In this document: in pieces, positions 14,466 to 32,015 of the stretch
Layout: the number at the start of each line of letters is the position of its first letter
Numbering within the stretch: the first letter of the stretch is position 1
Source: Planctomycetota bacterium
GTDB taxonomy: Bacteria > Planctomycetota > Phycisphaerae > Sedimentisphaerales > Anaerohalosphaeraceae
DNA: 32,387 nt
Direction of reading: 5' to 3'
NCBI GenBank assembly: GCA_016873215.1
Contig: VGXU01000028.1
Coordinates: forward strand, 1-32,387
Program-made: the position numbers and the translations under genes
Notes under the pieces: generated by a model
Told to the model about the DNA's origin: nothing
What the model saw: the letters and a program-made list of their open reading frames with translations, nothing else
Databases searched by the model: none

Positions 14466-16547
14466 TTGAAGATAGCCTTTAAGAAGATTATAGTAACATT
14501 AATTATCATGCTCGGCACTGCCCCTGTAAGCGCCGATGAGGGTATGTGGCTCTACAACGACTTGCCCCGTCAATTATTGAAAGATAAATACGCATTTGAA
14601 GTAACAGAAGCTTGGTTAGAGCATATTCAAGAATCTTCGGTGCGGTTTAACAGCGCCGGCTCCGGTTCCTTTGTATCTGAAGATGGCCTCATTATTACAA
14701 ACCATCATGTAGGCGCTGACGCTCTTCAGAAGTTCAGCAACATCGAGCATGATTATTACCGGGATGGATTCTATGCCCGCACCCGAAAAGAAGAAAAACG
14801 GTGTCTGGATCTGGAACTGAATGTACTTATCAGCATCAACGACGTGACGGACAGGGTCAACGCTGCTGTCAAAGCCAACATGTCTGCCGAGGAAGCTTTT
14901 ACGGCCCGCCGAGGGGTCATGGCCCAAATCGAAAAGGAATCCCTCCAAAAGACGGGGCTGCGCAGCGATGTAGTCATTCTGTATCAGGGTGGATTATACC
15001 ATTTATATTGCTTTAAGAAATATACGGATGTTCGCCTGGTGTTTGCTCCTGAGTATCAAATCGCTTTTTTCGGTGGTGACCCTGATAATTTTGAATATCC
15101 CCGTTTTGACCTCGATTTTTGCCTGTTCCGGGCATACGAAAACGATAAGCCAGTCAAAGTCGAGCATTACCTCAGATGGAATTCAAACAAGGTGAAGGAA
15201 GGAGACCTTGTCTTTGTTTCGGGACATCCAGGAAACACTTCTCGGCAATTAACCATGCCCGAATTAGAATACCTGCGAGATCAATCTTTTCCTTATAAGA
15301 TGCAGAGGCTGCACAGCCTGGAAGTGATGCTGTTGGCCTACAGCTCCCGAAGCGATGAAAACGCCCGTCGTGCAAAAAAAGACCTGTTTGGTGTTCAAAA
15401 CAGCCGCAAATTAATGCAGGGCAGGTTTGAGGGTTTGCTGGACTCTTCGCTTATGATGCAAAAACAGGCGGACGAACAACACCTGCGTGCGTCTGTGGCA
15501 AAAGACCCTAATGCAGAAGAAATTCTGCCCTCCCTGGATCGTATTGCTAATGCGCAACAGATCATTGCCCATAATGCACAACAATATAGTTTGCTCGAAG
15601 CAGCCGATGGCTTCAACAGTACCCTCTTTCATATTGCACGTACCATTTCTCGAGCGGTAGAGGAGAAGACGAAATCGAATGAAGAACGCCTGCGTGAATT
15701 CCGGGAATCCAACCTGGAGTCCCTTGAATTCCAACTCTTTTCGGAGAAGCCCATCTATGATGATTTTGAGCAAGTCAAACTCGCTGAATCCCTGACTTGG
15801 CTGGTTGAACAAATAGGATATTCCCACCCATTGGCCCAGAAGGTGTTGGCCGGCAAGTCGCCGGGGACACGTGCTGCCGAATTGGTTTCGGGAACTCAAT
15901 TAAAAGATGTCGCGATTCGCAAGAAACTATATTCGGGGACGGCCGTTGAGGTAGAAGCATCGCAGGATCCCATGATTAAATTGGCCAGATTGATTGACTC
16001 GGATGCCCGCGCCTTGCGGAGAATTATTGAAATCCAGGAAGAGATTAACCATCAGGCCCACGCCAAGATTTCTCAAGCCAGGTTTGCAGTGGAGAAAACC
16101 AGTTCGTACCCTGATGCAACCGGCACACTGCGTCTGGCGTTTGGTACGATAAAAGGCTATGAGGAAAACAATCAGGCGGTTCCCTTCCAAACCACTTTTT
16201 CCGGTCTCTACGATCGAGCGGCTGCACACCATTATAAGCCGCCGTATGACCTCCCTCCATGCTGGATAGCTCGGAAAGACAAACTCAACTTGAACACGCC
16301 GGTTAATTTCGTTTCCACGGTGGATATCATTGGCGGCAATTCGGGCAGTCCCGTCATCAATCGGAATGGTGAATTTGCAGGCATTATTTTTGACGGTAAC
16401 CTTCAGTCTCTGGTGCTTGATTTTGCTTACACAGATATTCAGGCTCGAGCAATCTCCGTCGATTCACAGGCCATCGTCGAAGCTTTGCAGAATGTCTATA
16501 ACGCTGGGGAACTGGCCAACGAGTTAACCGGCAAAAACAGGCGTTAG
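14466..16547 (+). CDS. S46 family dipeptidyl peptidase (DPP7-like)
   Basis: A protein of 693 aa, normal for peptidase family S46, which releases dipeptides from the N-terminus of peptides outside the cytoplasm. A signal peptide covers about residues 1-23. The chymotrypsin-like core is split: the catalytic His lies in IITNHHVG (residues 80-81) and the nucleophile Ser626 in GGNSGSPV. Eighteen residues after that Ser is Gly644 in IIFDGN. In characterised members Gly at this site (DPP7) favours hydrophobic P1 residues, whereas Arg (DPP11) favours Asp/Glu, so a DPP7-like preference is predicted. The start is TTG at 14466, supported by GGGAGGT seven bases upstream. An OPT peptide transporter gene follows 39 bases on. 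Confidence 0.92.
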   Translation: MKIAFKKIIVTLIIMLGTAPVSADEGMWLYNDLPRQLLKDKYAFEVTEAWLEHIQESSVRFNSAGSGSFVSEDGLIITNHHVGADALQKFSNIEHDYYRDGFYARTRKEEKRCLDLELNVLISINDVTDRVNAAVKANMSAEEAFTARRGVMAQIEKESLQKTGLRSDVVILYQGGLYHLYCFKKYTDVRLVFAPEYQIAFFGGDPDNFEYPRFDLDFCLFRAYENDKPVKVEHYLRWNSNKVKEGDLVFVSGHPGNTSRQLTMPELEYLRDQSFPYKMQRLHSLEVMLLAYSSRSDENARRAKKDLFGVQNSRKLMQGRFEGLLDSSLMMQKQADEQHLRASVAKDPNAEEILPSLDRIANAQQIIAHNAQQYSLLEAADGFNSTLFHIARTISRAVEEKTKSNEERLREFRESNLESLEFQLFSEKPIYDDFEQVKLAESLTWLVEQIGYSHPLAQKVLAGKSPGTRAAELVSGTQLKDVAIRKKLYSGTAVEVEASQDPMIKLARLIDSDARALRRIIEIQEEINHQAHAKISQARFAVEKTSSYPDATGTLRLAFGTIKGYEENNQAVPFQTTFSGLYDRAAAHHYKPPYDLPPCWIARKDKLNLNTPVNFVSTVDIIGGNSGSPVINRNGEFAGIIFDGNLQSLVLDFAYTDIQARAISVDSQAIVEALQNVYNAGELANELTGKNRR

Positions 16548-16586
16548 GCATTTAAAAGTGACATTTTGAGGAGACTTTATTTAAGT

Positions 16587-18521
16587 ATGAACTCAAATGA
16601 TCGTACGTTGCCGGAAATTACATTAAAAGCATTTTTATTAGGGGTTTTTCTTTCCGTCATATTGGGCGCAGCCAATGCCTACCTTGGGTTGTTTGCGGGT
16701 ATGACAATCTCGGCGTCGATACCCGCAGCGGTGGTTTCGATGGGCGTCCTGCGGCTGTTTCGACGCAGCAACATCCTGGAGAACAATATTGTCCAGACAG
16801 CCGCATCCGCCGGCGAATCGCTGGCCGCAGGAGTCATATTTACGTTTCCGGCTCTGGTCATCATGAATTACTGGGAAAAATTCGATTATATATGGGTAAC
16901 TGTCATAGCCGGCTTTGGGGGTATATTGGGAACGTTGTTTACAATCCCTCTCAGAAGAGCCCTGATTGTCGAAGATAAGTTGACGTTCCCAGAGGGAATC
17001 GCAACGGCGGATGTTTTAAAATCAGGAGATCGAGGCAGCTCGGACATCAAGTACATCATCCGGGCGTCCGCGGTCGGAGGAATTTTCAAGCTATGTGAGA
17101 GTGGATTGAGGTTATGGAACGGCACGGCCGTTATGGCGCACAGGGTCGGCTGTACAATGGCGTATTTCGGTTCCAATCTAAGCCCGGCGCTTATCTCAGT
17201 CGGATACATTGTTGGATTCAATATTGCCGTTCTTCTTTTCCTGGGCGGCGCTTTTAACTGGCTTATTGCGATACCGATTTATGCAAGTCTTAACGATTGG
17301 CCCATCATACAGGGAAAGCCGCTTTCGGCTTTGGATTGGGCAGGTACAATCTGGTCAACACAGACACGGTATATCGGTGTTGGCGCAATGCTTGTAGGCG
17401 GCCTGTGGACAATTGTTAAGATCAAAAGTTCGCTGTTCAGGGGTATAAAGAGCGGTCTTGAGGTCTATCAACATCTCGAAGGGAAGACAACCACGATAGA
17501 CAGGAAAGAAAAAGACATCCCAATGCGATGGGTGCTTATCTCAATAGCGGTTTCATTGGTCCCCTTGTTCCTCGTTTATCAGGTTTTTGTTGCAAATATA
17601 AGTATATCGGTGCCGATGGCAGTCATCATGCTGTTAGCCGGTTTTGTGTTTTCAGCAGTAGCAGCTTACATGGCCGGGGTCGTCGGATCCTCGAACAATC
17701 CGATATCCGGAGTAACAATAGCGATGGTGTTGGTTTCCGCCCTTTTGCTTTTGTTTTTGATGGGAGCCGAGGCGAAAACTGGACCTGCAGCCGCGATAAT
17801 CATGGGTAGCGTTGTTTGCTGCGCTGCGGCAATAGCTGGAGATGTTATGCAGGACCTCAAGACAGGTTACATTGTCGGAGCAACACCATGGAAACAGCAA
17901 TTGATGGAGATTGTGGGTACGGTCGCGGCGGCGCTGGTTATGGCGCCGATATTAACGTTGCTGCTGAAGGCGTATGGCTTTGCCGGTCACGAATCGGCTA
18001 AACAGTATCCGCTGATAGCAGCGCAGGCAAATCTGATTGCCTCTGTGGCAAAAGGGGTATTTGCCGGCCAACTGCCGTGGTATTTTATTTTCCTCGGCAT
18101 GGGTATGGCGGTGCTGGTCATACTTCTGGATGAATACCTTGCGCGGCGAGGAAGCTCTTTCAGGACACCGGTATTAGCCGTGGCCATAGGCGTTTATTTG
18201 CCTTTCGAACTGTCGGTACCGATTTTTGCAGGCGGAATCATCCACAGACTTGTTAAAAAATGTCACTCCGCAAACGGCATGACTGATAATGATATTGAAA
18301 CGACCAGCGGTCACGGGATGCTGATTGCTTCAGGATTAATCACAGGCGAGGCGCTACTTGGCATCCTTTTAGCGATACCCATCGTACTCAGCGGCAAACC
18401 TGACGTGCTGGCCGTGACGAATAATCCCTTAGGCGCATGGCCAGGCGTAATTTTGTTGACCGGCATTTGTTGCTGGCTGTTCCATGTGGCAAGAGGTAAA
18501 AGAAAAGATTCTATGCGATGA
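16587..18521 (+). CDS. OPT family oligopeptide transporter
   Basis: A protein of 644 aa from the ATG at 16587; an in-frame TTG at 16566 is possible but lacks a ribosome binding site. It is very hydrophobic, with roughly 14-16 membrane segments. The N-terminal GVFLSVILGAANAYLGLFAG and NNIVQTAASAGESLAAG, and DKLTFPEGIATADVLKSG, are typical of the bacterial/archaeal OPT branch; plant and fungal relatives move peptides or metal-siderophores. It lies 39 bases behind a secreted dipeptidyl peptidase gene on the same strand, so import of the released dipeptides is the most natural role. The GAGGAG in front is somewhat distant from the ATG (about 13 bases). Confidence 0.9.
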   Translation: MNSNDRTLPEITLKAFLLGVFLSVILGAANAYLGLFAGMTISASIPAAVVSMGVLRLFRRSNILENNIVQTAASAGESLAAGVIFTFPALVIMNYWEKFDYIWVTVIAGFGGILGTLFTIPLRRALIVEDKLTFPEGIATADVLKSGDRGSSDIKYIIRASAVGGIFKLCESGLRLWNGTAVMAHRVGCTMAYFGSNLSPALISVGYIVGFNIAVLLFLGGAFNWLIAIPIYASLNDWPIIQGKPLSALDWAGTIWSTQTRYIGVGAMLVGGLWTIVKIKSSLFRGIKSGLEVYQHLEGKTTTIDRKEKDIPMRWVLISIAVSLVPLFLVYQVFVANISISVPMAVIMLLAGFVFSAVAAYMAGVVGSSNNPISGVTIAMVLVSALLLLFLMGAEAKTGPAAAIIMGSVVCCAAAIAGDVMQDLKTGYIVGATPWKQQLMEIVGTVAAALVMAPILTLLLKAYGFAGHESAKQYPLIAAQANLIASVAKGVFAGQLPWYFIFLGMGMAVLVILLDEYLARRGSSFRTPVLAVAIGVYLPFELSVPIFAGGIIHRLVKKCHSANGMTDNDIETTSGHGMLIASGLITGEALLGILLAIPIVLSGKPDVLAVTNNPLGAWPGVILLTGICCWLFHVARGKRKDSMR

Positions 18522-20851: not shown

Positions 20852-22690
20852 TTATATAGCTCTCGTCTTTTCGAGAGTCACCTTGAGTTTGTTCACTAAT
20901 TTTTCAACCTGTGTGTCTTTGAGCGTTAAAATATCTTTCAGCGCCTGGCCGATATGCGGCAGATAGATTTCAATATAGCCCCGCTTGACCATTTCATCTT
21001 TGATGCGCCGCTGTTTGCGGACGTGCAGTCCCAGCTTGCGTCCGCATTCCTGGACAGCCAGTTTGATTTCCTTAATAATTTCCGGGTAATGAGCGACAGC
21101 CTCTTTGCTTTCTGAGGTAAAGGGCACCCAGACCGAGGCGATATGAATCATCAGCAGCACCGGCCCCGACGGCAGCGCTCCCCGGCTTTGACTCAGGCCG
21201 TAGCTGCGCCAGTTGACTTCCAGCACCGCCTTGTATGTCGCGCAGGCCGACTGCTGATACAGCAGCGGCACACGGTTGGCAAACCGCACCAGCCGCATCA
21301 TTTGTTCTTTCTCGTCCTTATTGGCGGATGTATCGCTTTCCTGTTCATCGCTGTTTTCGCCTGCGGAAGACTCTTTACACCCATACGCCAATGCCGCTTC
21401 CACAAGGAATGGATTCCCGCGATAAACGGCGGGCTTGCGCGTACAGCTCGTATAGAATTCCGCATCGACCACCCGTTTGAGACCGTCAACAAGTTTTTCT
21501 TCGCCGATGGGGCCGATACAATCCGTCGGCGGCGACATCAGTTTTGTTGAATTGATAATCTCGTGCAGTTTTTCCGCGTCCTTGATAGATAAATCCCGGG
21601 GCTTCATCCGTACGGACAGTTTCGCCTTTTTCAGAATCTCCGAAGCGACATGCGGGCTGACACGCGAAAACTCATTTCGCAAAAAATCACACATCGTCCG
21701 TGATTCGGTTTGCCGGGCCATTTTGAACAGGACACCAATTTCGACACCGTAAGGATGCGGCTTGATTTCCACCGGAATAAACGGCATCTGTTTACTCTGC
21801 CGGGGATACTCGTAGGTATTGCCGTCCGGGGCAATATAGGAAAACGCCGCATGCGGATTGGCAATTGCTGTCTGGGCCAGATATTCATCGACGCTCTGCC
21901 GGCCCTTTTGATAACGCCCCTCCAGAACAATGGAAACGCTCGTACCCACCGGCAGGTCAAATTCGCATTCTTCGTCCAGATTCACTTCCGGGCGGTTTTT
22001 AGTCGTATCAATCTGGACATGATAATGATTGGCCGGTTTCTTCGGATTGGTACGGGTGATAATCTGTACCGGCTCGCCGGTGGTCAAAAGGCCGTACATT
22101 CCCGCGGCGCTGATGCCGATGCCCTGCTGACCGCGGCTCATCTTGAGTGTATGAAACTTGCTGCCGTACAAGAGCCGGGCGAAGATATTCGGCACTTGTT
22201 TTGGCATAATGCCCGGCCCGTTGTCTTTGACGGTCATCCGAAATTTGTTTTCGCTGCTGTCCACCGGAACGATGGAAACGGTAATCGCCGGCAGGATATA
22301 CGCCTCCTCGCAGGCGTCCAGCGAATTGTCCACCGCCTCTTTGACCGCGGTCAATAGCGCCTTGCGCGGATTATCGAATCCGAGCAGATGCCGGTTCTTG
22401 GCGAAGAATTCGCTGACGCTGATATCTCGCTGCTTGGCAGCCATTGACTCGGCGGTCGCCGCTTCGCTTTTCCGCCGTCGCGAAGATGATTTTCCTGAAG
22501 GATTTTCTTTTTCCGATACCATTTCCGATTCAGACCCCGTATCCGAAACCGCCGCTTCCGGTTGTCCGGATGGTGACGTCAACAGTTTTATTTGTTCCGA
22601 AGACGTCGGCTCAAAATCAAAAAGAGGCTGATTCGCCTGTTTTTTCTTTTTGGCCTTTCTGGTCACATCTAATGTTGTCGTCGCAGCCAT
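20852..22690 (-). CDS. top6B: DNA topoisomerase VI subunit B
   Basis: A protein of 612 aa from the ATG at 22690. The GHKL ATPase domain shows LLTAVKEAVDNSLDACEEA (Glu118, Asn122), VKDNGPGIMP and SRGQQGIGISAAG. The H2TH region and the transducer domain follow, with SQSRGALPSG and PFTSESKEAVA, where the ATP-contacting switch lysine is expected. With subunit A it forms a type IIB topoisomerase that relaxes and decatenates DNA; it is typical of archaea and scattered in bacteria. The first 88 residues are an added basic and Ser-rich extension before the normal start (DISVSEFF). An acidic insert lies before LVRFANRVPLLYQ. No Top6A gene is in the window. The operon continues with glmM and the CDF gene. 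Confidence 0.92.
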   Translation of the reverse strand: MAATTTLDVTRKAKKKKQANQPLFDFEPTSSEQIKLLTSPSGQPEAAVSDTGSESEMVSEKENPSGKSSSRRRKSEAATAESMAAKQRDISVSEFFAKNRHLLGFDNPRKALLTAVKEAVDNSLDACEEAYILPAITVSIVPVDSSENKFRMTVKDNGPGIMPKQVPNIFARLLYGSKFHTLKMSRGQQGIGISAAGMYGLLTTGEPVQIITRTNPKKPANHYHVQIDTTKNRPEVNLDEECEFDLPVGTSVSIVLEGRYQKGRQSVDEYLAQTAIANPHAAFSYIAPDGNTYEYPRQSKQMPFIPVEIKPHPYGVEIGVLFKMARQTESRTMCDFLRNEFSRVSPHVASEILKKAKLSVRMKPRDLSIKDAEKLHEIINSTKLMSPPTDCIGPIGEEKLVDGLKRVVDAEFYTSCTRKPAVYRGNPFLVEAALAYGCKESSAGENSDEQESDTSANKDEKEQMMRLVRFANRVPLLYQQSACATYKAVLEVNWRSYGLSQSRGALPSGPVLLMIHIASVWVPFTSESKEAVAHYPEIIKEIKLAVQECGRKLGLHVRKQRRIKDEMVKRGYIEIYLPHIGQALKDILTLKDTQVEKLVNKLKVTLEKTRAI

Positions 22691-22795
22691 AACTATTCTA
22701 AGTTCCGACTTTCCTGTCCGCCATTCAGCCTGTTGGCATCCGGGCAATGACAATCCATTTTTATAGTTTAATTGAAGTATTCCTATAAATCCAGA

Positions 22796-24489: not shown

Positions 24490-25173
24490 CTAATAAACAT
24501 CCTCTTGAACCATTTCATTCAGCGTAGAACGCTCTTCGTTAATCCGGTATTCATTTTTGCGACAGGTATAAAAATGGCGGACGACGCAATGCGCCGCCGC
24601 AGCAGTGAGTGTTTTAACCTGATTTTCCCGACCCTCCGTTGACAACTCCGTTGCCACATCCGCAACAATACCTTCGGTATTCTCGGGGCAAACGATTTTT
24701 TCAGTCTGGCTGTCTATTAAAACCGCCCTGGCTCGCATCTGGCCGGAATAAATTTTATCGCCGTGTAAATTGATGACCTCAAAATTCTCGAGACGAACAT
24801 AGAGAACCAGTCCGGCTCCGACTTGTCGCCCCAGCGCCGCCGGAGTTTGGGAACGGCCATAAACCGCAGGATGTGAAGCGGTCTGCGTCAGGATGTTTTT
24901 CTCACTGATTCTCGCCTTTTTTCTCAGTTGTGCCAAAATTGCCTGATTTAACTGTCCGGCAACCCCGGCATCGGCCCCGCTGCCGGGCAAAGATTCCACC
25001 CAGACAAACAGCATTTTTTGCTGAAGCCGGCTTTTTAAATCACAGTTAGGCTTAATCCCTTTCTCAAACGGCCCCGGATTGGCCAAAAAACCAAAAAGAG
25101 TGCACCCTTGGCACAAAAACATCTGCACCAAAAATACAACACAAAGGGTCAGCTTTTTCAGGTTCTTATTCAA
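24490..25173 (-). CDS. Uncharacterised lipoprotein
   Basis: A protein of 227 aa starting at TTG 25173, with GGAGG 12 bases before it inside the end of the DUF2752 gene. Longer in-frame readings upstream are only a shadow of that gene. The N-terminus is a lysine-rich signal ending in LCQGC, a degenerate lipobox at Cys24. The mature part has LFVWVESLPGS and, further on, GLVLYVRLENFEVI and GQMRARAVLID. It looks like an alpha/beta periplasmic domain of the kind seen in envelope-assembly lipoproteins, but I do not recognise the family. It lies between a DUF2752 membrane protein and serA. Confidence 0.7.
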   Translation of the reverse strand: MNKNLKKLTLCVVFLVQMFLCQGCTLFGFLANPGPFEKGIKPNCDLKSRLQQKMLFVWVESLPGSGADAGVAGQLNQAILAQLRKKARISEKNILTQTASHPAVYGRSQTPAALGRQVGAGLVLYVRLENFEVINLHGDKIYSGQMRARAVLIDSQTEKIVCPENTEGIVADVATELSTEGRENQVKTLTAAAAHCVVRHFYTCRKNEYRINEERSTLNEMVQEDVY

Positions 25174-25178
25174 CTTAA

Positions 25179-25646
25179 TTATGGTCCTCCGTTGCCGCTC
25201 AGAGTCTTTGCTAAAGTCGCCAGCCAGCCCAGCAGAATAACCGCACATGCACCCACAATAACATACCTCCAAAAACAGGGCCGGAGCAACACCTGCTGCA
25301 AACGGGAGTGTATCCCAAAAATTGCGGTATGTAAAGACAAAATCGCCGTCAGAACCGCTACGCCGCAAAACACCGCCGCCGCCGGCTGAATTTGAAAGGA
25401 ACGTATCATATCCCCTGCCGTAAACGCCTGTGCCGCATGAGTCCATCCGCATCCCGGACACGGAAGGCCGAACCGCTGTTTGAATCCGCACACGCCGAAC
25501 ACATAACGAAATTGAAGCGTCCCCTTTTCTCCCAGCCGCAGTAGAACGAAAACACAGACAATTCCCAGAAAAATCGCAGCGGCAATCAGTCGTGTTGCGG
25601 GGGATTTTGTTTTTTTCACAGCATTTGTTGATTGGCAATCGGTCAT
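25179..25646 (-). CDS. DUF2752 membrane protein
   Basis: A protein of 155 aa from the ATG at 25646. The signature FGLPCPGCGWTHAAQAFTAG defines the DUF2752 family, in which CPGCG precedes a Thr-rich helix. Hydrophobic segments lie at about residues 20-38, 87-108 and 124-145. Function is unknown; the two close cysteines may bind a metal or form a disulfide at the membrane surface. A promoter with TTGACA lies directly upstream and gives almost no leader. The following lipoprotein gene starts at the last codons of this one. Confidence 0.8.
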   Translation of the reverse strand: MTDCQSTNAVKKTKSPATRLIAAAIFLGIVCVFVLLRLGEKGTLQFRYVFGVCGFKQRFGLPCPGCGWTHAAQAFTAGDMIRSFQIQPAAAVFCGVAVLTAILSLHTAIFGIHSRLQQVLLRPCFWRYVIVGACAVILLGWLATLAKTLSGNGGP

Positions 25647-25655
25647 TTGCCGGAT

Positions 25656-25684
25656 ACAATAGACCGCACCTGTAAATTTGTCAA
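25656..25684 (-). promoter_or_regulatory. Predicted promoter of the DUF2752 gene
   Basis: On the minus strand, TTGACA (forward 25679-25684), a 17-base spacer, TATTGT (forward 25656-25661). Transcription would begin near 25649, only about three bases before the ATG at 25646, which suggests a nearly leaderless mRNA. It also overlaps the leader of the divergent phosphatase gene. Confidence 0.6.
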
Positions 25685-28590: not shown

Positions 28591-28601
28591 AGCCGTTTTA
28601 T

Positions 28602-28675
28602 GGGCGTATAGCTCAGTTGGTTAGAGCGCACGGATCACACCCGTGAGGTCACAGGTTCGAGTCCTGTTTCGCCCA
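28602..28675 (+). tRNA. tRNA-Val (anticodon CAC) with an acceptor-stem mismatch
   Basis: The cloverleaf is complete: acceptor gggcgta with ttcgccc, D stem gctc/gagc, anticodon stem cacgg/ccgtg with loop atcacac giving CAC, T stem acagg/cctgt with loop ttcgagt, discriminator A. Position 6-67 is a T-T mismatch (28607 with 28669). The 3' part, from the anticodon loop on, is also the end of the integrase gene on the other strand, so the mismatch may mark recombination with an element-borne tRNA end. Confidence 0.93.
28635..28675. other. Attachment site within tRNA-Val
   Basis: The 3' half of the tRNA is shared with the integrase reading frame, whose last 13 codons (GETGLEPVTSRV preceded by Met) and stop are antisense to it. 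This is the usual arrangement when a tyrosine recombinase uses a tRNA 3' end as the core of recombination. The exact core and the matching repeat at the other end of the element cannot be set because that end is outside the window. Confidence 0.75.
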
Positions 28676-30041
28676 TTGGATAAAAAATATCTTTAATTTG
28701 AGACGTTTCGCAAAGTTCGGAAAATTTACGCTTAATCCCGAAATCGCAAGGACTTAAGACATCATTGGCAGTACTGTCTTGCAAAACGTCGCCGGTCGTT
28801 TCTACTATGCTCTGGCCCTGATTGTGGCCCACTTTTTGGCCCTCTTTTTTGCCCCCATTTTGGACGGTGTTTTCGGCGTGATTTAAGACAGTTTTTTCAG
28901 CCGCTTGTTTCATGTCTGCATCGGTAACTTGTGCATAATGGGCCATAGCAACAGCAGGACTATTCCCCAGCCAACTGCAAACGGCCTTAAGATTGCCGCC
29001 GGTCATCTTGAATAATTCCGTTTCCCTTGTGCTTCGGCAGTTCTGAAACAGCTTCGGCCAAGCGGCTATTCCAGCCCGCTTCAATATCCGGCCTAACTGT
29101 GTCCGCAAATTGACCTTGCCGCCCCTGTAGCTCTCAACACAATAAACCGCCCCTTCTTTGGCCGAATCATACGCATCCTGAAACAGCGGCTTTAACTCTG
29201 GAAACATAGGGACAATACGAACTCCGCAATCCGCATGATGTTCGGTCTTTGGGCTGTGTACCGTGAACCGCTGCTTATCAAAATCGACATCTTGCCATTT
29301 AAGCCGTACAATTTCGGATGGACATCGCAAACCGCCCCAGCGGGCAAGACCAAAGATTAACCGCCATTGACTATCAGGACAGGCATCCAAGACCTTCTGT
29401 GCCGTTTCTACGGAGAGATAATAGAATCGGGATTCATTTGCCCGGACGGATACCGATTGCCCCCGGAACGGGTTTTTGGTGATAATCTCGGCATCAATCG
29501 CCGCATTAAAGAATTGCCGGGTAATCCCGATATGCCGTCGCAGGGTGTTTTCAGACAGCAGGGAAACAGTTTGCAGGTATATACGAAAGTTCTTTGCCTG
29601 CTCTTTTGTAACACTATCAAGGGAATCATCTTTGAAGAAAATCGCCAGTTTGCTTTCCACATCACGCCATTTTCGCCGGGTAGCTTCTTTCACGTCTAAC
29701 CGCCGGTCGATATAATCGGCAACCCATGCCGCAACCGTCCATCGGGTCTGTTTTTCTCTGGATTCAATAAGCCCCAGGACTTCAAGCCGCTTCCTTAAGC
29801 GGTCATCAATCGCCTTTATCCATGCCGCTGTAGTATCCTCAATCCTCTGGCCGTTCATGCATCGGATTAGGTCGTCTATGTACCGATGGACCTTTTGGGC
29901 CTCGTCCTGTTTTATCTCGACTTCCTTTTTTTTGGCCCCAGCGGGTATGACTATACCCAGGAAGATTTTTGGCCGGGCCTCATTCTCACCTGGAGACAAC
30001 CGGAGATAATACCGCCCTTTAATTTTCGATAGACTTGACAT
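28635..30041 (-). CDS. Tyrosine recombinase (integrase)
   Basis: A protein of 468 aa. A SAM-like core-binding domain covers about residues 100-195 and the catalytic domain about 205-385. Expected catalytic residues: Arg239 in GGLRCPSEIVRLKW, Lys265 in HSPKTEHH, Arg336/Arg339 in NCRSTRETEL, and Tyr369 in VAMAHYAQV. The first His of the usual HxxR box is replaced by Asn334. The last 85 residues are Lys/Gly/Gln-rich and then end inside the tRNA. It starts two bases after the HTH gene and is probably co-transcribed. It should integrate and excise the neighbouring element at tRNA-Val. Confidence 0.92.
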   Translation of the reverse strand: MSSLSKIKGRYYLRLSPGENEARPKIFLGIVIPAGAKKKEVEIKQDEAQKVHRYIDDLIRCMNGQRIEDTTAAWIKAIDDRLRKRLEVLGLIESREKQTRWTVAAWVADYIDRRLDVKEATRRKWRDVESKLAIFFKDDSLDSVTKEQAKNFRIYLQTVSLLSENTLRRHIGITRQFFNAAIDAEIITKNPFRGQSVSVRANESRFYYLSVETAQKVLDACPDSQWRLIFGLARWGGLRCPSEIVRLKWQDVDFDKQRFTVHSPKTEHHADCGVRIVPMFPELKPLFQDAYDSAKEGAVYCVESYRGGKVNLRTQLGRILKRAGIAAWPKLFQNCRSTRETELFKMTGGNLKAVCSWLGNSPAVAMAHYAQVTDADMKQAAEKTVLNHAENTVQNGGKKEGQKVGHNQGQSIVETTGDVLQDSTANDVLSPCDFGIKRKFSELCETSQIKDIFYPMGETGLEPVTSRV

Positions 30042-30043
30042 AT

Positions 30044-30235
30044 CTACCTCATTTTCTTTTTTGAAATTACATAGTCAAAATATACAAGCAATTTTTCCAC
30101 TGTCTCGGCTTTACAACTGCCGCCCTGCATTATCCGACATAAGACGGCCTGGTCAACCCCTGTATCCTTCCAGATTCTATATCGGGTCTTGCCGCAGGTC
30201 TTTATCTCTTTTTGTAATGTCTTTAGTATGTCCAT
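30044..30235 (-). CDS. Small helix-turn-helix protein (XRE-like)
   Basis: A protein of 63 aa from the ATG at 30235. The segment TRYRIWKDTGVDQAVLCRIM is a Cro/CI-type helix-turn-helix, followed by KAETVEKLLVYFDYVI. It may act as an excisionase-like or repressor protein that controls integrase, which starts two bases downstream. There is no ribosome binding site, and the predicted transcription start coincides with the ATG, so the mRNA may be leaderless. An in-frame TTG at 30253 lies inside the promoter and is unlikely. Confidence 0.8.
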   Translation of the reverse strand: MDILKTLQKEIKTCGKTRYRIWKDTGVDQAVLCRIMQGGSCKAETVEKLLVYFDYVISKKKMR

Positions 30236-30241
30236 ATAGGC

Positions 30242-30270
30242 AATATATCTCAATAGTAATCAATCGTCAA
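30242..30270 (-). promoter_or_regulatory. Predicted promoter of the HTH-integrase operon
   Basis: On the minus strand, TTGACG (forward 30265-30270), a 17-base spacer, TATATT (forward 30242-30247). The -10 box is only six bases from the ATG at 30235. Confidence 0.65.
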
Positions 30271-30304: not shown

Positions 30305-30342
30305 GCCGGGGGGATGTCTGACCGTCAGACATGGCCCCCGGC
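30305..30342. other. Long nearly perfect inverted repeat
   Basis: gccggggg (30305-30312) pairs with cccccggc (30335-30342), and atgtctga (30314-30321) with tcagacat (30325-30332), separated only by a one-by-two internal loop and a three-base tip. It lies just after the last gene of the accessory operon and before the HTH promoter. No proper T run follows on either strand. It may end or protect the operon mRNA, or be a protein-binding or processing site of the element. Confidence 0.7.
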
Positions 30343-30356
30343 CAGCCAGAAAACTC

Positions 30357-30947
30357 TCAACTGTTTTCCGGTAAGTCGTTAAAATGCGGTATCTTAATGC
30401 TGTTTTCCGCTTCATCGGCCAACTGCCTGGCGTTTGCTTCAATCATCTCGTTTTGTTTTTGGCAATAATTAGCGGCATTTTCCAAAAAGCACATTCTTCT
30501 CTGTATCCGTTCAAAGTCGGTCGCAGCCTGTCGATATTGTGCTTGAATACCCAAAAGGCCAGAGGCTTTAATAAAACCATCTCTTGCGTGTTCCATTTCT
30601 TTGGTCGTCTCTCGTAACTGTCGCCGTGAGGACTTGACGTTATCGATAATTCTGGGGATAGGTTCCGCCGCAGCCGCAGCCGCCTTCAACAGCCCCAGGC
30701 CCGAAAGCCGGGTGTATTCCTCATGGTGTTTGTTGAACATCGCCATCCCAACACTGACCGCGTCAGCGGCCCGTCGTATCTGTTCAAACAAAAAATTAGT
30801 TTTTTCGACAACCGCCAATAACTGACCAAGACAAATCCTGTCTTTGTCGTCCAGGTCATCGCCGACATAATTGTCCGAAATGTACTTGCTGACGATTGAG
30901 TCCATCGCAGCCCCGGCATTTTTTGAAACAACATCCTGCTTACTCAT
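30357..30947 (-). CDS. Helical protein of the integrative element
   Basis: A protein of 196 aa from the ATG at 30947, with AAGGA upstream. It overlaps the end of the preceding HExxH gene by eight bases, so translation is coupled. The sequence is almost wholly alpha-helical and charged: an N-terminal part with MDSIVSKYISDNYVGDD, an Ala-rich middle (LLKAAAAAAEPIP) and long helices with Arg/Glu/Gln such as SSRRQLRETTKEMEHARDGF and RRMCFLENAANYCQKQNEMI. No signal peptide or membrane segment. I do not recognise it. As the third gene of an operon with two HExxH paralogues it could be their partner or substrate; that is only inference. Confidence 0.7.
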   Translation of the reverse strand: MSKQDVVSKNAGAAMDSIVSKYISDNYVGDDLDDKDRICLGQLLAVVEKTNFLFEQIRRAADAVSVGMAMFNKHHEEYTRLSGLGLLKAAAAAAEPIPRIIDNVKSSRRQLRETTKEMEHARDGFIKASGLLGIQAQYRQAATDFERIQRRMCFLENAANYCQKQNEMIEANARQLADEAENSIKIPHFNDLPENS

Positions 30948-31470
30948 AAATTTTCCTTTCAATTTTTTTATAATGCTTCAGTTTCTCGGCATCAAAGCCG
31001 AACAGTTCAATCCAGCTATTGCAATTATTTTCAACTTCTATTTTTTTATCATCATATTCCGACAGCTTAAAGGCCCCGATTGCAAACTGAAACTCGTGTG
31101 TCAACTCGTGGGCAATCAATGCCTCTGCGCCGTCGGTGTCCATCTCCATAATCATGTCGCTGCAAAAAAAATAGCCCGTGTCAAGGCGGAAAAACGCTGA
31201 CGGGGTGTTCGCGTTCTTTCGTTTTGAAAACTGCGAAAACCACCGTTGTCTGTTTGCAAGGATGATTTTGGGATAGTCCGTTACCAGTAACCGCCGCTGT
31301 CTCCATGCCGCCAGCAGGGTCCTTCGCACAAAAAAGGATAGCGATATCCAGACGCGGCAGAACAACTCTATAAACCGCCGCGCGTCTGTGGCAGAAACAC
31401 CAAAACACTCAACCGGGATTGCCCGCCGCCGCAGAACATGAATAAAAAAAACTATATCGGGTTTTTTCAT
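30940..31470 (-). CDS. Putative zinc metalloprotease-like protein (HExxH), copy 2
   Basis: A protein of 176 aa. Residues 117-125 read EALIAHELTH, a zinc-binding HExxH motif at 121-125, and about 20 residues later IEVENNCN could supply the third ligand, as in ImmA/IrrE-like proteins where HELGH is followed by ExEAN. It is a paralogue of the next upstream gene: shared are the RR.LL..WR.RR block, ILA..R, AFF...G.FF, ME.D and the end GFD. The ATG overlaps the stop of that gene (ATGA), and its own stop overlaps the next start. The N-terminal 60 residues are basic/hydrophobic but without a clear signal. Substrate unknown. Confidence 0.75.
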   Translation of the reverse strand: MKKPDIVFFIHVLRRRAIPVECFGVSATDARRFIELFCRVWISLSFFVRRTLLAAWRQRRLLVTDYPKIILANRQRWFSQFSKRKNANTPSAFFRLDTGYFFCSDMIMEMDTDGAEALIAHELTHEFQFAIGAFKLSEYDDKKIEVENNCNSWIELFGFDAEKLKHYKKIERKIYE

Positions 31471-32015
31471 ATTGCCGCCTTAGTCTTGCTGGACAAGCCC
31501 GTCCAGTTTTCATTTTGGGTGTCAAAGCTAAAACCGAGTACCCGGACCAGCTCATTACACTCTGCCTCAAGTTTCTCCTCACCCAGCTCATCCGCCGTTA
31601 GCCCCGCGTCGTCCAGGCAATCATGCGACAGCTCGTGAATGATAATCGACTCAATAAAGTCATCCGACTCGGCCATAATTTCCGCGCTAAAATAAAAGCC
31701 CGATTCGGGATGGAAAAAAGCCAAAGGCTTTTCGCGTCCTGGAGAACAATACCGTCGCGCGAAGGTCCGCTGCCCGGCCAAAATGACAAACGGATAGTAC
31801 AGATAAGCCGCTCGCCGCTTCCGCCAGCTTCTCAACAGATATCGCCTCGCATCAAACTCCATCGTCTCCCAGGCATGGATAAAAAGCGTTGCGAATCGAT
31901 TCGCATCCTCGCGCGAAACATTATACACGAGTAAAGGAATAGACTTGTGCCGCCGAACAGGTAATAAATAAAGCTGCTCAACCTCTATTTTCGGTTTCCT
32001 CTTTTTGGGCTTCAT
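31467..32015 (-). CDS. Putative zinc metalloprotease-like protein (HExxH), copy 1
   Basis: A protein of 182 aa from the ATG at 32015, with GGAG nine bases upstream; the longer in-frame reading to 32222 is not supported. The zinc motif HELSH is at residues 127-131 in ESIIIHELSHDCLDDAG, and KLEAECNEL (residues 148-156) matches the position of the third ligand in IrrE/ImmA-type peptidases. The N-terminus is Lys-rich (KPKKRKPK). Clear alignment over most of its length with the gene at 30940-31470 shows a tandem duplication followed by divergence. It is the first gene of a three-gene operon on the integrative element. A regulatory protease cutting a repressor is one idea; other metal-dependent functions are possible. 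Confidence 0.75.
   Translation of the reverse strand: MKPKKRKPKIEVEQLYLLPVRRHKSIPLLVYNVSREDANRFATLFIHAWETMEFDARRYLLRSWRKRRAAYLYYPFVILAGQRTFARRYCSPGREKPLAFFHPESGFYFSAEIMAESDDFIESIIIHELSHDCLDDAGLTADELGEEKLEAECNELVRVLGFSFDTQNENWTGLSSKTKAAI

What the first reader, a model, noticed from the sequence alone, without database searches (positions are those of the whole stretch)
30357..32015. Tandem HExxH paralogues plus a helical protein in one overlapping operon on an integrative element
Two adjacent genes encode diverged copies of the same protein, each with HExxH followed about 20 residues later by ExE and CN, the spacing of ImmA/IrrE-like peptidases. All three genes overlap (ATGA and ATGAGTAA), so they are made together. 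The operon sits behind an integrase and a small XRE-like regulator. IrrE/ImmA proteases control repressors in mobile elements such as ICEBs1, but a duplicated pair with an unknown helical partner is not a layout I know. It could be a de-repression switch, a defence unit or a toxin-type module.
Basis: partly seen in the sequence, partly recalled or inferred. Interest (0 to 1): 0.72.

Follow-up and report, generated by a model that had tools for sequence, protein, structure and literature searches.

The report
Paired orphan metalloproteases on mobile element
Next to the integrase of a mobile element lodged in a bacterial tRNA gene sits a three-gene operon encoding two old, diverged copies of an unclassified zinc-protease-like protein and an all-helical partner; both copies look active and belong to a very rare family seen once elsewhere, also on a mobile element, but what they cut is unknown.

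Summary
Three minus-strand genes overlap by 4 and 8 bases: P0003 (182 aa, 32015-31467), P0002 (176 aa, 31470-30940) and helical P0001 (196 aa, 30947-30357). P0002 and P0003 are real paralogues (35% identity, E=1e-27); both keep HExxH and a downstream ExxCN. The predicted P0002 model puts HExxH on a zincin-type helix; its best structural matches are mostly zincins, all weak. One true relative turned up in roughly 700-800 related genomes; it keeps HELAH...ExxAD and also sits on a mobile element, but singly and without the helical gene. Phages, plasmids and viral contigs gave nothing. ImmA/IrrE (M78) membership is not supported: no Pfam match, and the residual profile similarity is not specific (an M56 control scores higher). 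A strong hairpin (z=-5.6) and a promoter-like site separate the operon from the small XRE-like gene and integrase, so this is not an immR-immA layout. The integrase ends inside tRNA-Val; the contig ends at 32387, so the rest of the element is missing. Best reading: a cargo or conflict module of two gluzincin-type proteases with a helical partner or substrate; a de-repression switch is the main rival. Function is inferred, not shown.

The parts
31467..32015 (-). P0003: first metalloprotease-like paralogue, 182 aa, HELSH (127-131) ... EAECN; first gene of the operon as far as the contig shows
   Evidence: SD-like GGAG upstream of ATG 32015
30940..31470 (-). P0002: second metalloprotease-like paralogue, 176 aa, HELTH (121-125) ... 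ENNCN; its ATG overlaps the stop of P0003 (ATGA)
30357..30947 (-). P0001: all-helical protein, 196 aa, overlaps the P0002 end by 8 nt (ATGAGTAA); no homologue or family
30308..30338 (.). GC-rich hairpin with perfect ATGTCTGAC-C-GTCAGACAT palindrome just after the operon: terminator-like or operator (undecided; no T run)
   Evidence: (z=-5.6)
30242..30270 (-). Promoter-like site TTGACG-17-TATATT upstream of the small regulator and integrase
   Evidence: consensus match only
30044..30253 (-). P0005: small XRE-like DNA-binding protein (mechanical ORF from TTG 30253; ATG at 30235)
   Evidence: phrog_9425 E=0.0012
28635..30041 (-). P0004: tyrosine integrase; its last codons lie inside the tRNA gene (att core)
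28601..28676 (+). tRNA-Val(CAC): integration site; junction of chromosome (left) and element (right)

Best explanation
A cargo (conflict-type) operon of an integrative element. Two diverged, co-made gluzincin-type metalloproteases, both with intact predicted zinc ligands (HExxH plus ExxCN), are produced together with a helical protein that is their partner or substrate. Shown: gene layout, paralogy, motif conservation also in a remote homologue on another mobile element, zincin-like predicted topology, integration in tRNA-Val. Inferred: zinc binding and proteolysis, that the two act as a pair, that P0001 is the partner or substrate, and that the target is a protein of a competing element or of the host (the slot beside this integrase type holds SIR2-like genes or a TerY/kinase/phosphatase set in two relatives).
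For: Paralogues 35% identical, E=1e-27, catalytic residues kept in both; remote homologue G542:C94 (E=1.6e-9; 40 bits against at most 7 bits for 5,000 shuffles) keeps HELAH and EFDAD...WGFD, which lines up without gaps with ENNCN...FGFD (sequences). AlphaFold2 model: strands and helices, then HExxH in helix 112-130 at pLDDT 73-78; Foldseek/VIA top matches are mostly zincins: YbeY, collagenase, selecase, M1 aminopeptidases, HtpX, lethal-factor catalytic domain. The core fits the published description of zincin-like MPTases of mobile elements (three-stranded sheet, HExxH helix, then a helix with Glu; PMC5512222). 4- and 8-nt overlaps with SD-like sites. All seven integrase relatives examined overlap tRNA genes; two sit beside SIR2-like or TerY/kinase/PP2C genes. 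A hairpin after P0001 closes the operon.
Against: The third-ligand region is modelled at pLDDT below 50, model mean 65.5, with only two sequences in the alignment. The homologue is single and lacks the helical partner, so the three-gene unit is seen once. Two other integrase relatives border phage-like or replication genes rather than defence genes. No library recognises the proteases; P0001's only PADLOC match is a coiled-coil part of ZorA, E=7e-4. The element is cut by the contig end.
Confidence: 0.4

Rival explanations
1. De-repression switch: the proteases cleave the element's repressor (P0005 or one beyond the contig end) after DNA damage or another signal, as ImmA does with ImmR in ICEBs1, releasing excision.
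For: Mobile-element setting; small XRE-like gene next door; ExxCN at 19-22 residues after HExxH falls in the range of local M78 proteins, most of which have E at about 19-29 and many ExxCN; immR/immA logic known on ICEs (PMC10233336); the G542 homologue lies about 200 bp downstream of a gene whose C-terminus weakly resembles a winged-helix regulator.
Against: No PF06114 match; similarity to M78 is not specific; P0005 is in a separate unit behind a hairpin; two proteases and a helical protein are more than such a switch needs.
Confidence: 0.27
2. Phage or plasmid biology proteins: stand-alone zincin-like MPTases that process the element's own proteins (virion, replication or injected proteins), with P0001 a structural or scaffold protein.
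For: Zincin-like MPTases are the commonest domain of polyvalent proteins of phages and conjugative elements (PMC5512222); an integrase relative in the same genus borders genes that look like phage replication and tail genes; the homologue is among RepB/ParB, primase-like and helicase genes.
Against: The proteins are small and single-domain; no structural, packaging or transfer gene is seen in the 3.7 kb of element available; no match in 50,697 phage records or in the viral contig scans.
Confidence: 0.2
3. Toxin-antitoxin or pore-forming module: the protease pair activates or restrains a helical membrane-active protein (P0001).
For: P0001 is predicted as long helices with an Ala/Gly/Leu-rich segment (GLGLLKAAAAAAEPIP); AhlC and ClyA are among its fold matches.
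Against: Those matches are not significant (E>=0.07) and are mixed with designed bundles, CorA/Mrs2 and spectrin; model pLDDT 63, single sequence.
Confidence: 0.08

Closest known systems
ImmA/IrrE (Peptidase_M78, PF06114), repressor-cleaving proteases of ICEs and Deinococcus
   Same: HExxH followed about 19-29 residues later by ExxCN/ExxAN; mobile-element setting with a small HTH gene nearby
   Different: No PF06114 match; different N-terminal half (conserved RR.LL..WR..R helix); two copies plus a helical gene; HTH gene in a separate unit
Zincin-like MPTase domains of polyvalent proteins (PMC5512222)
   Same: Zincin core, HExxH and Glu on the next helix, found on phages and conjugative elements; a lethal-factor fold match is reported there too
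   Different: Here small stand-alone proteins in tandem, without ArdC-N or other fused domains; no direct sequence comparison with those clades was made
SprT-like / PhageMetallopep families
   Same: Weak sub-threshold match of the G542 homologue (SprT-like E=0.0032)
   Different: Below curated cut-offs; the window proteins themselves do not match

Membership tests
Zincin (gluzincin-type) metallopeptidases | HExxH on a helix that follows a beta sheet | tested here: met
   AF2 of P0002: strands 69-72, 92-95, 99-103, helix 112-130 with HExxH 121-125; fold matches mostly zincins but weak, E>=0.05
Zincin (gluzincin-type) metallopeptidases | Downstream glutamate as third zinc ligand | tested here: inconclusive
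   ExxCN/ExxAD present in all three family members, but that region is modelled at pLDDT <50
Zincin (gluzincin-type) metallopeptidases | Zinc binding and proteolysis | not testable with these tools
   needs purified protein
Peptidase_M78 (ImmA/IrrE) | Match to PF06114 above cut-off | tested here: not met
   No match at E<=1 for P0002 or P0003; no PF06114 hit at E<=1e-5 in the own genome
Peptidase_M78 (ImmA/IrrE) | Specific profile-profile similarity over the domain | tested here: inconclusive
   89% probability over 50 columns around the motif only; M56 control 96.6%
Peptidase_M78 (ImmA/IrrE) | Same operon as a cognate HTH repressor (typical, not universal) | tested here: inconclusive
   The XRE-like gene lies behind a strong hairpin with its own promoter-like site; genes upstream of the operon are beyond the contig end
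SprT-like | Match to PF10263 above cut-off | tested here: not met
   window proteins no match; homologue 17.7 bits against cut-off 25.6
Known anti-phage defence system | Match to PADLOC models | tested here: not met
   proteases none; P0001 only a ZorA coiled-coil stretch

The most novel reading that the evidence does not exclude
A new two-protease conflict system: an obligate pair of diverged zincins that cleaves and activates (or is restrained by) a co-made helical effector when a competing element invades.
Probability: 0.15. Interest if true: 0.75.

Novelty: new variant of a known kind. Interest (0 to 1): 0.42.

Why it matters
Zincin-like proteases are recurrent tools of mobile elements, mostly known as single ImmA-type proteases or as domains of giant polyvalent proteins. 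A small, very rare, unclassified family kept as two old paralogues made together with a helical partner would be a further way in which such elements use proteolysis, and it comes with an easy assay: co-expression and cleavage of three small proteins.

Tried and rejected
Homologue searches: genome contigs twice, viral contigs six scans, phages and plasmids by tblastn: nothing real. One search's locus L038 is a phage tail-type locus matched by chance. Order-wide hits L027, L029, L034 are M56/BlaR1-like and match only around HELAH; L028, L030-L033, L035 and L036 are chance or broken frames. P0001 hits L071 and L072 are not credible (a stretch of an 1841-aa frame; an ORF opposite other frames). 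M78 membership was tested and not upheld. attR search: the only other match, with 3 mismatches, is an intact tRNA-Val(TAC), so the far end of the element was not found. M78 chains do not appear among the fold matches, which is no evidence against. No fold model of P0003 was made (both jobs went to P0002 and P0001).

Full report
Setting. The window is the whole of contig C28 of a 2.69 Mb draft genome, so nothing to the right of 32387 is available. Left of 28600 are ordinary chromosomal genes. tRNA-Val(CAC) lies at 28601-28676; a tyrosine integrase (P0004; Pfam Phage_integrase E=1.5e-7) runs toward it on the minus strand and its last codons are read from the tRNA complement. Relatives of this integrase occur in 7 of 39 genomes of the family, own included, and all seven loci examined overlap a tRNA gene at the 3' end of the integrase (Val, Tyr, Lys, Glu). 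So 28635 to the contig end is the left end of a tRNA-integrated element; the right end was not found.

The operon. Transcribed leftwards: P0003 (ATG 32015), P0002 (ATG 31470, ATGA overlap), P0001 (ATG 30947, ATGAGTAA overlap). Each start has an SD-like sequence. Codon usage supports the three frames and does not support the extension of P0003 above 32015 or the small ORF P0006. Whether more genes of the operon lie beyond the contig end is unknown. After P0001 comes a strong hairpin (-37.4 kcal/mol, z=-5.6) containing a perfect 9-1-9 palindrome found once in the window, then a promoter-like site, then the XRE-like P0005 and the integrase.

The paralogues. 35% identity over 153 residues, E=1e-27. 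Shared features: a basic helical block RR.LL..WR.RR, YP..ILA, a strand pair, HEL[ST]H and E..CN followed by GF. A profile of the two found one real relative in 397 genomes of the class (G542:C94, E=1.6e-9; score 40 bits, best of 5,000 shuffles 7 bits), only chance hits in the 161 genomes of the order, none in 392 genomes drawn from the phylum and none in the other seven genomes of G542's order; these samples overlap. The relative is 27-30% identical to each paralogue, nearly as far as they are from each other, so the duplication is old or the two were acquired separately. In G542 the gene is single, between two serine recombinases, with RepB/ParB-type genes and a primase-like/helicase pair nearby: again a mobile element, but another layout. 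The program alignment pairs E145 with E150; shifting the loop gap pairs ENNCN...FGFD, EAECN...LGFS and EFDAD...WGFD without gaps, which I take as the better register (my reading of the sequences).

Fold. AlphaFold2 of P0002 with two sequences: mean pLDDT 65.5, pTM 0.66; HExxH in helix 112-130 at pLDDT 73-78; residues 134-176 below 50. Foldseek: no match below E=0.001 in either library, but the top PDB rows are mostly zincins (YbeY, collagenase, selecase, M1, HtpX); VIA-align gives Z 7-8.5 to the lethal-factor catalytic domain and M1 aminopeptidases, in the range its notes call common, so I use this only for the fold class.

Family. No Pfam, NCBIfam, PHROGs or PADLOC family is credible for P0002 or P0003. 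Compared with 24 M78 proteins taken from related genomes, the profile similarity is limited to HExxH...ExxCN (89%); M56 proteins as control reach 96.6% on HExxH and its flank (the control came from an earlier match and so is generous). Spacing and ExxCN are M78-like, whereas M56 has its ExxCCD much further on. I therefore call the family gluzincin-like and do not file it as M78.

P0001. No credible homologue; all-helical model, pLDDT 63; fold matches are generic helical bundles, including AhlC/ClyA, CorA, spectrin and designed proteins. No function can be read from it.

Mechanism. Two intact-looking zincins and a helical protein made together suggest a working complex (inference). Circumstantial pointers to a conflict role: beside related integrases lie SIR2-like genes (L024) and a TerY/kinase/PP2C set with a HerA-like match (L022); two other relatives border DnaB-like, phage-type genes instead (L018, L019). 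A de-repression switch (ICEBs1, TnSmu1; PMC10233336) and processing of element proteins (PMC5512222) remain. My split is 0.40, 0.27, 0.20, 0.08.

Verdict. Real, well described, unusual in layout, but of a known general kind (zincin proteases on mobile elements), the three-gene unit seen once, with function unproven.

Noticed in passing
window 20852-22753 (-): Topoisomerase VI B subunit-like protein (Topo-VIb_trans E=1.3e-55) in this chromosome, beside phosphoglucomutase and phosphoglycerate dehydrogenase genes; a 389-aa neighbour (24490-25659) has no Pfam match. The A subunit was not looked for.
   Followed up: partly
window 14466-18521 (+): S46 dipeptidyl-peptidase directly followed by an OPT oligopeptide transporter: likely a peptide-use pair.
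   Followed up: no
L022 3913-9470 (G441:C75): TerY-like, kinase, PP2C-like and HerA-like genes next to an integrase of the same clade in another tRNA gene.
   Followed up: partly
L024 2628-6702 (G012:C45): Two SIR2-like genes next to a relative of the integrase.
   Followed up: partly
L069 10449-13593 (G542:C94): Primase-small-subunit-like protein overlapping a DEAD helicase on a serine-recombinase element, beside the single zincin homologue.
   Followed up: no
window 30308-30338: Perfect 9-1-9 palindrome inside a strong hairpin between the operon and the regulator: terminator or operator.
   Followed up: partly
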